A DNA stretch of 64,000 nt from Gammaproteobacteria bacterium (GTDB lineage: Bacteria; Pseudomonadota; Gammaproteobacteria; 21-64-14), in contig JALUXX010000011.1 of the NCBI GenBank assembly GCA_027013145.1, forward strand, positions 318,556 through 382,555. The letters are read 5' to 3'. Below are positions 37,338 to 54,620 of this stretch, one piece after another. The notes under the pieces were generated by a model. It had not been told where the DNA came from and did not search any database. It saw nothing but the letters and a program-made list of their open reading frames with translations. The translations under genes and the position numbers were made by a program. Position 1 is the first letter of the stretch; every line of letters begins with the position of its first letter.

Positions 37338-37362
37338 GATGCGCACGAAGCTGGTGCGCATC
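37338..37362 (+). promoter_or_regulatory. NtrC-like dyad upstream of the porin-urt operon
   Basis: GATGCGCAC at 37338-37346 and GTGCGCATC at 37354-37362 form a perfect 9-bp dyad around 7 bases. Its core GCAC-N7-GTGC has the exact spacing of NtrC enhancer sites. Its centre is ~120 bp before the start point predicted from the sigma-54 box at 37447, a normal enhancer distance. Confidence 0.55.
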
Positions 37363-37446
37363 ACCCCCCACGCTCCGGCACCACGGCCCCGCCTTCGATT
37401 CCGTAACCCAAGGAAAACTTAGCTATTTGCCGAAATGCTCCCGGAG

Positions 37447-37462
37447 TGGCCCGCTTGTTGCA
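37447..37462 (+). promoter_or_regulatory. Sigma-54 promoter of porin-urtABCDE
   Basis: TGGCCCGCTTGTTGCA carries the invariant GG and GC at -24/-12 with exact spacing and matches the TGGCACG-N4-TTGCW consensus except for one C. Transcription would start near 37474, ~75 bp before the porin ATG. It sits in an unusually A/T-rich stretch (37405-37440), a likely bending region between activator and promoter. Confidence 0.7.
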
Positions 37463-37548
37463 CTGGCCGCCACCGTCCCGCGGTGCGCTCGTGTTCGGGT
37501 ACGGGCAGGCGGCGCGGGTTTTCGGACTCGTCCACTGGAGAAGAATCG

Positions 37549-38694
37549 ATGAAACGAACCCATCGCTCCCGTCATCACCGCATCCTCCCGTTCGCCGCCG
37601 CCGGAGCGCTGCTCGCCGCCGTGCCCGGGGTGTCGACCGCGGGTTCGAACAACCTGTCCGACCTGTTGAGCGGACTCACCATCTCGGGCTACATCGACCC
37701 CACCTACATCTACAACCAGCGCCAGCACATCAGCTCGTTCTTCTTCGGCGACAAGAACGCCGCCTACAACTACTACCACAGCAGTTTCGGCGACCTCTAT
37801 CTGGAGGCGAACAAGAAGTTCTCGGGCGGCAGCTCGATCGACATCCAGATCATGCCCAATCGCGGTTACGGCGCGGGCGTCGACAGCATCATCAACGCCG
37901 CCTACTTCACCATCCCGGTGACCGACAAGTTCTCGATCCTCGGCGGCCAGATGCCCGCCTGGGACGGTTACGAGCCCCAGGTCTCCACGGGCATGTTCGC
38001 CGTGACGCACAACCTGCTGTTCGACTTCAGCGAGCCCGGTTTCTTCACCGGCGTCGGCGGCCAGTACGCCACCGGGCCCTACACCCTGCAGGTGCTGCTG
38101 GCGAACACCTGGAACAGCGCCTTCAACACCAGCTTCAAGGAGCCGACGCTCGAGTACCGCTTCTCGGTGGCGCCGTCCTCCTCGTTCAGCTACGGCCTGT
38201 TCGGCACCATCGGCAAGATCGCCAGCGCGAACTCGAACGTCGGGCCCACCACGCGCTTCTTCAACGACCTCGACGCAACCTATACCAGCGGCGGGCTCAC
38301 CTTGAGCGGCCAGCTCGACCACGGCTACCAGTCGCGGGGCGCGGCCAACGGCGGCGACGCCCATTGGTACGGCGTCTCGCTGCTCGGCAACTACAAGTTC
38401 ATGCCGATGGCGAGCTTCACGGTGCGCTACGACTACCTCAACGACATGAAGAACGGCGGCCACATCGTGGGCGATCCACAGGACGGCTTCATCACCGACC
38501 CCACGGATCCTAATGCCGGCCCGTTGCGTCAAGCCTTTACCGGTGCGCTGCTGCTCTATCCCTACAAGCACCTCACCGTGAAGCTCGAATACCGCCACGA
38601 CTGGGCGAACTTCGCCACCTTCCTGGACGCCAATACGGGCGTGTACCACGACACCGACAACACCGTAGCGGCGCAGTTCCTGTTCGCCTTTTGA
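37549..38694 (+). CDS. Outer-membrane beta-barrel porin of the urea uptake locus
   Basis: 381 residues. A signal peptide (ILPFAAAGALLAAVPGVSTA) precedes a barrel of alternating strands rich in Tyr, Phe, Gly and Asn (ISGYIDPTYIYN, NYYHSSFGDLYLEANKKFSGGSSIDIQIMP, YGLFGTIGKIAS, ASFTVRYDYLNDM, LTVKLEYRHDWANF) and ends in a terminal Phe (AAQFLFAF), the outer-membrane signature. It matches OmpL-like porin-2 type proteins. It is the first gene after the sigma-54 promoter and immediately precedes urtA, so it probably lets urea cross the outer membrane when nitrogen is short. Confidence 0.85.
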   Translation: MKRTHRSRHHRILPFAAAGALLAAVPGVSTAGSNNLSDLLSGLTISGYIDPTYIYNQRQHISSFFFGDKNAAYNYYHSSFGDLYLEANKKFSGGSSIDIQIMPNRGYGAGVDSIINAAYFTIPVTDKFSILGGQMPAWDGYEPQVSTGMFAVTHNLLFDFSEPGFFTGVGGQYATGPYTLQVLLANTWNSAFNTSFKEPTLEYRFSVAPSSSFSYGLFGTIGKIASANSNVGPTTRFFNDLDATYTSGGLTLSGQLDHGYQSRGAANGGDAHWYGVSLLGNYKFMPMASFTVRYDYLNDMKNGGHIVGDPQDGFITDPTDPNAGPLRQAFTGALLLYPYKHLTVKLEYRHDWANFATFLDANTGVYHDTDNTVAAQFLFAF

Positions 38695-38707
38695 GGGCTG
38701 CGCACGA

Positions 38708-38724
38708 CGCCCCCGCCGGGGGCG
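38708..38724 (+). terminator. Intercistronic hairpin between porin and urtA
   Basis: CGCCCCC, a 3-nt loop and GGGGGCG form a perfect 7-bp stem in the 71-bp gap. No T run follows, so partial attenuation or mRNA processing is more likely than full termination; it would favour porin over urt mRNA. Confidence 0.5.
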
Positions 38725-38765
38725 GGCATCCCGCACACTAACGACTTCGACAGGGGAATGCATTC

Positions 38766-53041: not shown

Positions 53042-54231
53042 GCCCGCCCCCCGCGGATGATCGAGCGGTGCGCGCCCATCTTGCCGTGGGCGACCAGCGA
53101 ACCGAGCACATCGACGATCGCCCGCGTAGCCATGAGCGAGGTGATGTCGGCGGTGTCGTAGGGCGGCGAGACCTCCACCACCTCCATCCCGCACAGGCCC
53201 TCGCGCGCCACCAGTCCGAGCAGGTAGAGGATCTCGCGCGGCAGGAAGCCGCCCGGCTCCGGCCACCCGGTACCGGGCACGAAACCGGCGTCGACCGAGT
53301 CGATGTCGAAGCTCAGGTAGACCGCATCGCACCCCTTCCAGGCGGTCTCGAGCGCGATCTCCGCGACCTTGTCGAGGCCCAGGCGCTCGACGTCATGCAT
53401 GGTGATGATGGTCGTGTCGCGGCGGCGCGCCTCCTTGATCGCCTGGCGCGGCACCTGCCAGCCCCCGATCCCGACCTGCACCAGGTTCTCGGGGCGCACG
53501 TTCGGCAGATTGGTGGCGTGATACCAGGGCGTGGTGTGCATCCGCTCGTCGAGGTCCTTCTCCTGGATGTCGGCGTGGCGGTCGAAGTGGACGATGCCGA
53601 TGCGCGCGTCGGTCTCGCGGGCGATGCCGCGCACGGTCGCGAACCCGATCGAGTGGTCGCCACCGATGATCACCGGCATCGCGCCGCTGGCGAAGACATG
53701 GCCGACGCCGCGGCTGATCTGATCGAAGGTCTTCTCGATGTTGGCCGGGATGGTGAACACGTCGCCGGCGTCGCACAGCGTCATCTGCTCGCGCAGATCG
53801 ACCCCGATCTCGTAGTTGTAGGGTGTGTACAGGGCCGAGATCCGGCGCACGCCCTGCGGCCCGAAGCGGGTCCCCGGGCGGTAGGTGGTGCCGCCGTCGA
53901 AGGGCACGCCGAGGACGGCGGCGTCGTACTTGCCCACATCGCGCACGTCCTCGCAGTAAGGCGCCTTCATGAAGGTGTTGATGCCGGCGAAGTGGGGCAG
54001 CTCGCCGCGCGCGAAGGTGGGGATCGACCGGTCCTCGAGGCTCTCGGCGCCCTCGAGGCCGAGTTCCAGGCAACGGCGTTCCTCGGCCTCCCAGCCGGCA
54101 TGCGGCAGCTCGGCCTCCTTGTGGGCGCACTGCCAGCCGTGCAGCTGGGTCTTGTCGAAGGAGGGATGGTGGGCGGCGGTGGTGCCCGCCGGGGCGAACG
54201 CCTCGCGGCGCAGGTGCAGGTCGTCGGCCAT
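53038..54231 (-). CDS. gdmH: Ureohydrolase, probable nickel-dependent guanidine hydrolase (GdmH type)
   Basis: 397 residues, ~80 longer at the N-terminus than ordinary agmatinases. Metal ligands are all present: H193 (GGDHS), D217, H219 and D221 (HFDRHAD), D309 and D311 (SFDIDSVD). HFDRHADIQEKDLDERMHT and AGFVPGTGWPEPGGFLPRE match, from memory, the cyanobacterial guanidine hydrolase GdmH (Sll1077) rather than agmatinase, where HxDAHxD and PGTGTPEPGG are usual. It should split guanidine into urea and ammonia. Guanidine riboswitch upstream, nickel transporter coupled downstream and urease nearby all support this. Agmatinase or guanidinobutyrase remains the alternative. Confidence 0.85.
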   Translation of the reverse strand: MADDLHLRREAFAPAGTTAAHHPSFDKTQLHGWQCAHKEAELPHAGWEAEERRCLELGLEGAESLEDRSIPTFARGELPHFAGINTFMKAPYCEDVRDVGKYDAAVLGVPFDGGTTYRPGTRFGPQGVRRISALYTPYNYEIGVDLREQMTLCDAGDVFTIPANIEKTFDQISRGVGHVFASGAMPVIIGGDHSIGFATVRGIARETDARIGIVHFDRHADIQEKDLDERMHTTPWYHATNLPNVRPENLVQVGIGGWQVPRQAIKEARRRDTTIITMHDVERLGLDKVAEIALETAWKGCDAVYLSFDIDSVDAGFVPGTGWPEPGGFLPREILYLLGLVAREGLCGMEVVEVSPPYDTADITSLMATRAIVDVLGSLVAHGKMGAHRSIIRGGRA

Positions 54232-54323
54232 GTCGGTGGCTCCTCTCGGCTCGGTTTGCGCGCTACACGGAGATCCGCCGCCGGGAACGGCCGCCGGGGC
54301 TCATGGCCCCGCGCCGATTCGGT
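54232..54323 (-). promoter_or_regulatory. Leader of gdmH with anti-aptamer segment and ribosome site
   Basis: Minus strand CCGTGTAGC (54270-54262) is perfectly complementary over 9 nt to GCTACACGG (54351-54343), a core conserved strand of riboswitch B. A GGGGC/GCCCC hairpin lies between (~54309-54296). No T-run terminator is present, unlike riboswitch A. The ribosome site is AGGAG at 54244-54240. Competition between aptamer folding and the 9-bp pairing probably controls access to the leader or ribosome site; the exact mechanism is inferred. Confidence 0.55.
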
Positions 54324-54412
54324 CTCCCGGGCTTTTATCCCGCCGTGTAGCCCCGAGGGGGCCGATGACCCTCGGTCCAGGCACCCGCCACGCGGGTCGG
54401 AACCCTAGTCAT
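54324..54412 (-). ncRNA. Guanidine-I (ykkC) riboswitch B, guanidine hydrolase operon
   Basis: Minus strand GACTAGGGTTCCG (54410-54398), CTGGACCGAGGG (54380-54369), GGGGCTACACGGCGGGAT and AAAAGCCCGGGAG (to 54324) appear in the class order and spacing. Two bases in the second block differ from riboswitch A. It lies ~93 bp before the gdmH ATG. Confidence 0.92.
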
Positions 54413-54479
54413 CCGCTTCCGGCCCGACCCCGCCCTTGCATCCGCGGGACCGGTCGCCGTGCACGCCTGACTCCGGCGG

Positions 54480-54495
54480 AGCAAGCACCGTGCCA
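54480..54495 (-). promoter_or_regulatory. Sigma-54 promoter of the gdmH operon
   Basis: Minus strand TGGCACGGTGCTTGCT is a perfect match to TGGCACGr-N3-TTGCW. Transcription would start near 54470, ~60 nt before the riboswitch B aptamer. It is the best of four such boxes in the nitrogen region. Confidence 0.8.
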
Positions 54496-54603
54496 TCGCG
54501 CCTCCCCGGACGCCCGTCGCCGCTAACGGTCTGTTTTCCTGTCCGCGCGCCCGGCACGCGTGCCGGCTACGGACGACCCGACGGTGCTGCCGCGCGGTCG
54601 GGG

Positions 54604-54620
54604 TTCACCGTTTTGGTGCA
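54604..54620 (-). promoter_or_regulatory. NtrC-like enhancer site for gdmH
   Basis: TTCACCGTTTTGGTGCA matches 15 of 17 positions of the NtrC consensus TGCACCAWWWTGGTGCA. Its centre is ~140 bp upstream of the predicted gdmH start point, a normal activator distance. It also lies ~130 bp before the divergent M16 peptidase gene. Confidence 0.6.

What the first reader, a model, noticed from the sequence alone, without database searches (positions are those of the whole stretch)
37338..54620. A complete guanidine-to-ammonia island with matched uptake, nickel supply and nitrogen control
Seen: porin-urtABCDE-ureDABCEFG on plus; gdmH-like hydrolase + NiCoT and an ABC importer on minus, each of the latter two behind a guanidine-I riboswitch; sigma-54 boxes at four points. 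Known: guanidine-I riboswitches sense guanidinium; GdmH-type ureohydrolases make urea + NH3; urease needs Ni. Inference: import, hydrolysis, urea splitting and Ni supply form one pathway giving three ammonia per guanidine, in a gammaproteobacterium.
Basis: partly seen in the sequence, partly recalled or inferred. Interest (0 to 1): 0.92.

Follow-up and report, generated by a model that had tools for sequence, protein, structure and literature searches.

The report
Guanidine-fuelled nitrogen island with nickel uptake
A gammaproteobacterium carries, side by side, what looks like everything needed to take up guanidine and split it into three ammonia molecules, including its own guanidine-switched nickel importer and a nitrogen-starvation promoter; the pathway is known, but this wiring is a new variant of it.

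Summary
Two guanidine-I riboswitches (92.5 and 86.3 bits), the only two in this 3.28-Mb genome, head gdmH–NiCoT and an ABC importer on the minus strand. Porin–urtABCDE–ureDABCEFG lies on plus. The hydrolase is a genuine GdmH guanidinase: E 1e-167 to the solved Synechocystis enzyme, all four guanidine-specificity residues kept, agmatinases far behind. GdmH with a riboswitch-controlled ABC importer is published; urease nearby recurs in 18 of 80 relatives. So this is not a new pathway.

Two things are less ordinary. (1) The genome's only NiCoT nickel/cobalt permease overlaps gdmH by 4 nt behind the guanidine switch; HypA (usual guanidinase nickel chaperone family) and HupE/UreJ were not found. 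A second gdmH–NiCoT operon exists in another family; HupE takes that place in two others. (2) A sigma-54 box directly precedes the riboswitch. This generalises: 87 of 99 Pseudomonadota guanidine-I riboswitches have one within 150 bp, against 0–1 of 99 in same-strand controls, suggesting two-key control: nitrogen starvation AND guanidine.

Corrections: urt/porin is a parallel urea input; the urease half has no guanidine riboswitch; of four claimed sigma-54 boxes two are strong, one fair, one weak. Nothing has been tested experimentally in this organism.

The parts
54604..54620 (-). NtrC-like site TGCACC-N5-GGTGAA upstream of the gdmH promoter
   Evidence: 1 mismatch to TGCACYNNNNNRGTGCA; read
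54480..54495 (-). sigma-54 promoter box TGGCACGGTGCTTGCT for gdmH-NiCoT
   Evidence: perfect match; one of 12 perfect boxes in the genome, 0 for reversed control
54322..54419 (-). guanidine-I riboswitch, 5' UTR of gdmH; no T-run terminator seen downstream
   Evidence: RF00442, 86.3 bits; folds
53038..54231 (-). gdmH, Ni-dependent guanidine hydrolase (guanidinase), 397 aa
   Evidence: PDB 7esr/7oi1 E 2.9e-167, 9fek 1.1e-163; key residues kept
52028..53041 (-). NiCoT (NicO) nickel/cobalt permease; GTG start overlaps gdmH stop by 4 nt
   Evidence: Pfam NicO E 1.2e-73, TIGR00802 318.6 bits; only NiCoT in genome
51980..51996 (-). NtrC-like site TGCACCGCCCGGGCGCA upstream of the importer promoter
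   Evidence: 1 mismatch
51888..51903 (-). sigma-54 promoter box TGGCACGGCTCGTGCA for the importer
   Evidence: 1 mismatch
51753..51855 (-). guanidine-I riboswitch, 5' UTR of the importer operon
   Evidence: RF00442, 92.5 bits
51718..51767 (-). intrinsic terminator that shares the aptamer strand AAAAGCCCGGG with CCCGGGCTTTTT (expression platform)
   Evidence: fold -59.6 kcal/mol, z -3.6
50663..51649 (-). substrate-binding protein of the guanidine importer (SsuA/TauA-like), 328 aa
   Evidence: TIGR01728 172.5 bits, over cut-off 163.5; relatives aligned
49796..50653 (-). importer permease
   Evidence: BPD_transp_1 E 3e-23
48918..49790 (-). importer ATPase (start approximate)
   Evidence: ABC_tran E 3.8e-35; TauB/NrtD-like
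37338..37362 (.). NtrC-like palindrome GATGCGCAC-N7-GTGCGCATC upstream of the porin
   Evidence: read output; no statistic computed for it
37447..37462 (+). sigma-54-like box TGGCCCGCTTGTTGCA upstream of porin-urt
   Evidence: 1 mismatch
37549..38694 (+). outer-membrane porin (BBP2/DUF3138)
   Evidence: Pfam E 6.9e-63 and 2.9e-33
38766..40004 (+). urtA, urea-binding protein
   Evidence: TIGR03407 560 bits, over cut-off
40048..40956 (+). urtB
   Evidence: TIGR03409 over cut-off
40970..42052 (+). urtC
   Evidence: TIGR03408 over cut-off
42049..42804 (+). urtD
   Evidence: TIGR03411 over cut-off
42801..43511 (+). urtE
   Evidence: TIGR03410 over cut-off
43674..43689 (+). weak sigma-54-like box upstream of ureD
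   Evidence: 2 mismatches; a box there in only 1 other of 18 loci
43752..44588 (+). ureD
   Evidence: Pfam UreD E 6.2e-54
44676..44978 (+). ureA (urease gamma)
   Evidence: ORF; matches in relatives
45064..45378 (+). ureB (urease beta)
   Evidence: ORF; matches in relatives
45378..47081 (+). ureC (urease alpha)
   Evidence: ORF; about 970-1070 bits to full-length relatives
47083..47559 (+). ureE, nickel carrier of urease
47549..48235 (+). ureF
48264..48908 (+). ureG

Best explanation
This is a guanidine-scavenging nitrogen island. Under nitrogen limitation NtrC and sigma-54 RNA polymerase start transcripts at the two minus-strand promoters; each transcript begins with a guanidine-I riboswitch and reads through only when guanidine is present (at the importer by preventing an overlapping terminator). 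The ABC importer brings in guanidinium, GdmH hydrolyses it to urea plus ammonia, and urease splits the urea to two more ammonia and CO2. NiCoT, translationally coupled to gdmH, supplies the nickel that GdmH and urease need. Porin-UrtABCDE is a parallel route that takes up external or leaked urea into the same urease. Shown by sequence: gene identities, riboswitches, terminator, boxes, gene order. Inferred: substrate of the importer, nickel rather than cobalt for NiCoT, NtrC as the activator, and all fluxes.
For: Riboswitches. GdmH identity and residues. NiCoT family, single copy, no HypA and no HupE found in the genome. Second gdmH-NiCoT operon behind a guanidine-I riboswitch in L112; HupE in the same place in L012 and near gdmH in L169. 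Riboswitch-importer-gdmH is the common arrangement; urease in 18 and urt in 10 of 80 named loci. Sigma-54 box within 150 bp of 87 of 99 guanidine-I riboswitches versus 0-1 of 99 in same-strand controls. True NtrC over its cut-off. Other perfect sigma-54 boxes lead to nitrate assimilation genes. Precedent: NtrC- and sigma-54-dependence of urt, ure and 'urea carboxylase' genes in Burkholderia cenocepacia (PMC5491218).
Against: No experiment in this organism. The NtrC-like sites are short and only moderately enriched (21 of 65 at <=2 mismatches against 3.1% background). NiCoT falls just under the TIGR00802 cut-off (318.6 vs 333) and NiCoTs can carry cobalt. The gdmH riboswitch has no classical terminator. 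In most relatives no NiCoT accompanies gdmH.
Confidence: 0.87

Rival explanations
1. The hydrolase is an agmatinase or guanidino-acid hydrolase and the island degrades arginine-derived compounds.
For: It lies in the arginase superfamily and matches agmatinase models below cut-off.
Against: Best solved relatives are the two characterised guanidinases at 560 and 548 bits; proclavaminate amidinohydrolase 177, guanidinobutyrase 167, agmatinase 125. T116, H232, W323 and E353 are kept. It sits behind a guanidine-I riboswitch.
Confidence: 0.03
2. Guanidine detoxification: the riboswitch senses toxic guanidine and the hydrolase removes it; nitrogen supply is incidental.
For: Many guanidine riboswitches control efflux pumps (PMC12186494).
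Against: The second riboswitch drives an importer-type ABC system with a binding protein, no Gdx/SMR exporter gene was identified among the island's genes, and the promoters are of the nitrogen-limitation type.
Confidence: 0.05
3. NiCoT mainly serves another metalloenzyme (cobalt for B12, or urease alone) and its place behind gdmH is accidental.
For: None of the 80 named gdmH loci has a NiCoT in the stretch held; NiCoTs may carry cobalt; urease also needs nickel.
Against: 4-nt overlap with gdmH; the same pair recurs in L112 within another family, with a guanidine-I riboswitch at the operon head; HupE replaces it in L012 and L169; HypA is not found in this genome.
Confidence: 0.12
4. The sigma-54-like boxes are chance matches in a G+C-rich genome.
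For: At <=2 mismatches the window holds the chance number, 9 against 9.0.
Against: 87 of 99 guanidine-I riboswitches have one within 150 bp on the right strand; 0-1 of 99 in shifted or reversed-pattern controls; perfect boxes genome-wide 12 against 0. It remains possible for the ureD box.
Confidence: 0.04

Closest known systems
Synechocystis PCC 6803 gdmH operon (sll1077-sll1082)
   Same: Guanidine-I riboswitch, GdmH, SsuA-like ABC importer, separate urease (PMC8390497; PMC12186494).
   Different: There two HypA/HypB-type nickel chaperones sit in the operon and urease is elsewhere; here no HypA is found in the genome, a NiCoT permease follows gdmH, urease and urt are next door, and the promoters are sigma-54 type.
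Comammox Nitrospira inopinata guanidinase locus
   Same: Guanidine-I riboswitch, GdmH-type guanidinase solved as 9fek, urease in the genome (PMC11410670).
   Different: It uses an APC permease instead of an ABC importer and has no nickel gene at the locus; this host shows no ammonia monooxygenase match (that search's controls were silent).
Riboswitch-ABC-gdmH-urease clusters of other Proteobacteria (L012, L014, L028, L030, L032-L034, L045, L053)
   Same: Same parts in one neighbourhood; L012 carries riboswitch, importer, gdmH, HupE/UreJ, ureDABCEFG and urtAB in a row.
   Different: Order and nickel gene differ; none of the 80 named loci has NiCoT.
Guanidine carboxylase operons (Raoultella, Klebsiella, Pseudomonas)
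   Same: Guanidine-I riboswitch plus ABC importer; sigma-54 boxes upstream of guanidine-I importers in Pseudomonadota genomes without gdmH as well.
   Different: They use ATP-dependent carboxylase, deiminase and allophanate hydrolase instead of guanidinase plus urease.
NtrC/sigma-54-controlled urt-ure operons (Burkholderia cenocepacia, Pseudomonas putida)
   Same: Urea transport and urease genes under nitrogen control (PMC5491218, PMC7801951).
   Different: Not adjacent to a guanidine module in those reports.

Membership tests
GdmH guanidinase | Closer to characterised guanidinases than to any other ureohydrolase | tested here: met
   560 and 548 bits to 7esr/7oi1 and 9fek; next enzyme 177 bits
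GdmH guanidinase | Specificity residues Thr97/Trp305 (Synechocystis), Thr105/His222/Trp313/Glu344 (N. inopinata) | tested here: met
   T116, H232, W323, E353, invariant in six aligned members (numbering mapped from the phmmer alignments)
GdmH guanidinase | Metal ligands of the arginase fold | tested here: met
   H193, D217, H219, D221, D309, D311 invariant
GdmH guanidinase | Ni-dependent hydrolysis of guanidine | not testable with these tools
   needs an enzyme assay
Guanidine-I riboswitch (RF00442) | Covariance-model score above gathering threshold, full-length | tested here: met
   92.5 and 86.3 bits against 63, positions 1-107
Guanidine-I riboswitch (RF00442) | Expression platform that guanidine can switch on | tested here: inconclusive
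   importer copy: overlapping intrinsic terminator found; gdmH copy: none recognised
NiCoT permease | NicO family with RHAxDADHI, GHSTVV, LGxDTATE and DTxD motifs (motifs from general knowledge) | tested here: met
   NicO E 1.2e-73; RHAFDADHI, LGHSTVV, LGFDTATE, MDTLD read
NiCoT permease | Transports nickel | not testable with these tools
   family carries Ni and/or Co; TIGR00802 318.6 bits, cut-off 333
Guanidine ABC importer | Binding protein, permease, ATPase under a guanidine riboswitch next to guanidine-degrading genes | tested here: met
   a related importer in G027 (L006) sits about 5 kb from a second riboswitch upstream of urea-carboxylase-associated-type genes (L010)
Guanidine ABC importer | Binds guanidinium | not testable with these tools
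   needs a binding assay
UrtABCDE / urease | Curated models for each Urt subunit; complete ureDABCEFG set | tested here: met
   UrtA-E over cut-offs; UreD by Pfam; others by ORF order and homology to relatives
NtrC/sigma-54 regulon | -24/-12 box, upstream NtrC-like sites, NtrC in genome | tested here: met
NtrC/sigma-54 regulon | Expression depends on RpoN and NtrC | not testable with these tools
   needs mutants or reporters

The most novel reading that the evidence does not exclude
Guanidine assimilation in Pseudomonadota is run by a two-key switch (a sigma-54/NtrC nitrogen-starvation promoter in series with a guanidine-I riboswitch), and in some lineages the switch also gates nickel import: the NiCoT behind gdmH is this host's only NiCoT, taking over part of the job done elsewhere by HypA/HypB-type nickel chaperones.
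Probability: 0.6. Interest if true: 0.62.

Novelty: new variant of a known kind. Interest (0 to 1): 0.52.

Why it matters
It extends guanidinase-based nitrogen use, known mainly from cyanobacteria and comammox Nitrospira, to gammaproteobacteria with a self-contained island, and gives two testable points: that guanidine can switch on nickel uptake, and that a starvation promoter and a metabolite riboswitch act in series as an AND gate. The second is a general pattern across about 100 riboswitches and would explain why these genes should be silent when ammonia is plentiful even if guanidine is present, unlike the whenever-available use reported for N. inopinata (PMC11410670).

Tried and rejected
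Agmatinase reading: rejected on scores and residues. Ammonia-oxidiser host (would make guanidine an energy source): no AMO match, but the control genomes were silent too, so weak. HypA- or HupE-based nickel supply in this genome: searched, not found; other nickel routes (Nik/Cbi ABC systems) were not searched. Four equal sigma-54 boxes: rejected; the ureD box is not conserved. The antisense Rfam hit 5_ureB_sRNA at 45548-45803 was set aside as likely coding conservation of urease. Structure prediction of the binding protein was not run because it would not settle the ligand. The first downstream-gene clustering was swamped by spurious frames in G+C-rich DNA and was replaced by targeted searches.
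Full report
What is there. The minus strand carries, in transcription order, a sigma-54 box (54495-54480), a guanidine-I riboswitch (54419-54322), gdmH (54231-53038) and NiCoT (53041-52028, GTG start overlapping the gdmH stop as GTGA), then a second sigma-54 box (51903-51888), a second guanidine-I riboswitch (51855-51753), and binding protein, permease and ATPase of an ABC importer down to 48918. The plus strand carries porin, urtABCDE and ureDABCEFG from 37549 to 48908. The two halves converge with about 10 bp between ureG and the importer ATPase gene. 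The genome has no other guanidine-I riboswitch.

Riboswitches. Both match all 107 positions of RF00442 well over threshold. The importer copy has a clear expression platform: the aptamer strand AAAAGCCCGGG also forms the 5' arm of a terminator ending CCCGGGCTTTTT (z -3.6), the standard transcriptional ON design. The gdmH copy has no T-run terminator; its platform is unresolved.

Hydrolase. Against all PDB sequences the best matches are the two solved guanidinases, Synechocystis 7esr/7oi1 (560 bits) and Nitrospira inopinata 9fek (548 bits); proclavaminate amidinohydrolase follows at 177, guanidinobutyrase at 167, agmatinase at 125. The residues reported to set guanidine specificity (PMC11410670) map to T116, H232, W323 and E353, and the metal ligands are intact. 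The NCBIfam agmatinase models score below their cut-offs.

Nickel. NiCoT belongs to the NicO family and is the only NiCoT in a 99.9% complete genome. HypA, the family of the guanidinase nickel chaperone in cyanobacterial operons (PMC10119275, PMC8390497), was not found, nor was HupE/UreJ. Among 80 named gdmH loci none has NiCoT within the stretch held, but an unnamed gammaproteobacterial genome of another family (G263, L112) has riboswitch-binding protein-permease-ATPase-gdmH-NiCoT in one row, L012 has HupE directly after gdmH, and L169 has HupE near gdmH. So a nickel permease was attached to guanidinase operons more than once. That nickel, not cobalt, is carried is inferred.

Nitrogen control. 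At two mismatches the window alone shows only the chance number of sigma-54 boxes, so I tested conservation. Taking every guanidine-I riboswitch recognised by its core motif in the gdmH loci and in a Pseudomonadota-wide sample (99 in all), 87 have a box with at most two mismatches in the 150 bp upstream on the correct strand; the next three 150-bp windows upstream, a downstream window, and the reversed pattern give 0 or 1 of 99. Opposite-strand counts rise to 7-8 in windows 150-450 bp upstream, as expected where two riboswitches stand back to back. In alphaproteobacteria the box mostly stands 10-15 bp before the aptamer, so transcription should start at the aptamer's first bases. NtrC-like sites are enriched about tenfold (21 of 65 against 3.1%), the host has a full-score NtrC, and other perfect boxes in the genome lead to what read as nitrate assimilation and flagellar genes. 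The sample is not phylogenetically corrected, but the contrast is large. The association includes importers in genomes that have no gdmH, so it is a property of guanidine assimilation in Pseudomonadota rather than of this island.

Prior knowledge. The pathway, the enzyme, and the riboswitch-importer-guanidinase operon are published (PMC8390497, PMC12186494, PMC11410670). NtrC/sigma-54 dependence of urea genes and of genes annotated 'urea carboxylase' is reported in Burkholderia cenocepacia (PMC5491218), and a sigma-54 survey lists a 'urea carboxylase'-annotated group among predicted targets (PMC12316311). Within the held library I found no paper that joins sigma-54 and the guanidine riboswitch, or NiCoT and guanidinase; Funck et al. 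2022 and other subscription papers could not be read.

How common. Close GdmH homologues occur in 8 of 369 sampled Gammaproteobacteria and 7 of 399 sampled Pseudomonadota (both samples include this genome). Of 80 named loci, 18 have urease genes and 10 have urt genes in the stretch held, some loci being cut by contig ends.

Model. With nitrogen short and guanidine present, importer, GdmH and NiCoT are made; guanidine becomes urea plus ammonia; urease finishes the job to three ammonia per guanidine. UrtABCDE and the porin feed external or leaked urea into the same urease; they are not a step in the guanidine path. Gene identities and control elements are shown; substrate of the importer, metal of NiCoT, activator and flux are inferred.

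Noticed in passing
45548-45803 (-); also L012:9025-9309, L027:12875-13164: Rfam 5_ureB_sRNA (antisense RNA known from Helicobacter urease) matches antisense to ureC at 88-126 bits; probably coding conservation of urease rather than a real antisense RNA.
   Followed up: partly
99 guanidine-I riboswitches in the window and L005-L156: Sigma-54 boxes stand directly upstream of nearly all guanidine-I riboswitches in this Pseudomonadota sample, with or without gdmH in the genome.
   Followed up: yes
L013, L014, L015, L016, L019, L021, L040: Divergent pairs of guanidine-I riboswitches back to back, one driving the importer and one driving gdmH.
   Followed up: partly
L012:2665-12400: Riboswitch-importer-gdmH-HupE/UreJ-ureDABCEFG in a single row with urtAB beyond: urease itself may be guanidine-switched there.
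   Followed up: partly
L006 and L010 (G027 contig 9): A window-type importer behind one guanidine-I riboswitch, about 5 kb from a second riboswitch upstream of urea-carboxylase-associated-type genes, with a perfect sigma-54 box: the same importer type seems to serve the carboxylase route.
   Followed up: partly
L097 (G262 contig 1, 502018-503166): A gdmH homologue with one in-frame TGA: pseudogene or sequencing error.
   Followed up: no
54231-54365 (-): The gdmH riboswitch lacks a T-run terminator, so its switching mode (translational, Rho-dependent or other) is unknown.
   Followed up: partly
window importer binding protein 50663-51649 and other-type importers: The two unlike importer types share a G-N-D motif in their binding proteins (NSAGND in this type, DFSNGND in the other), a candidate guanidinium-contact motif.
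   Followed up: no
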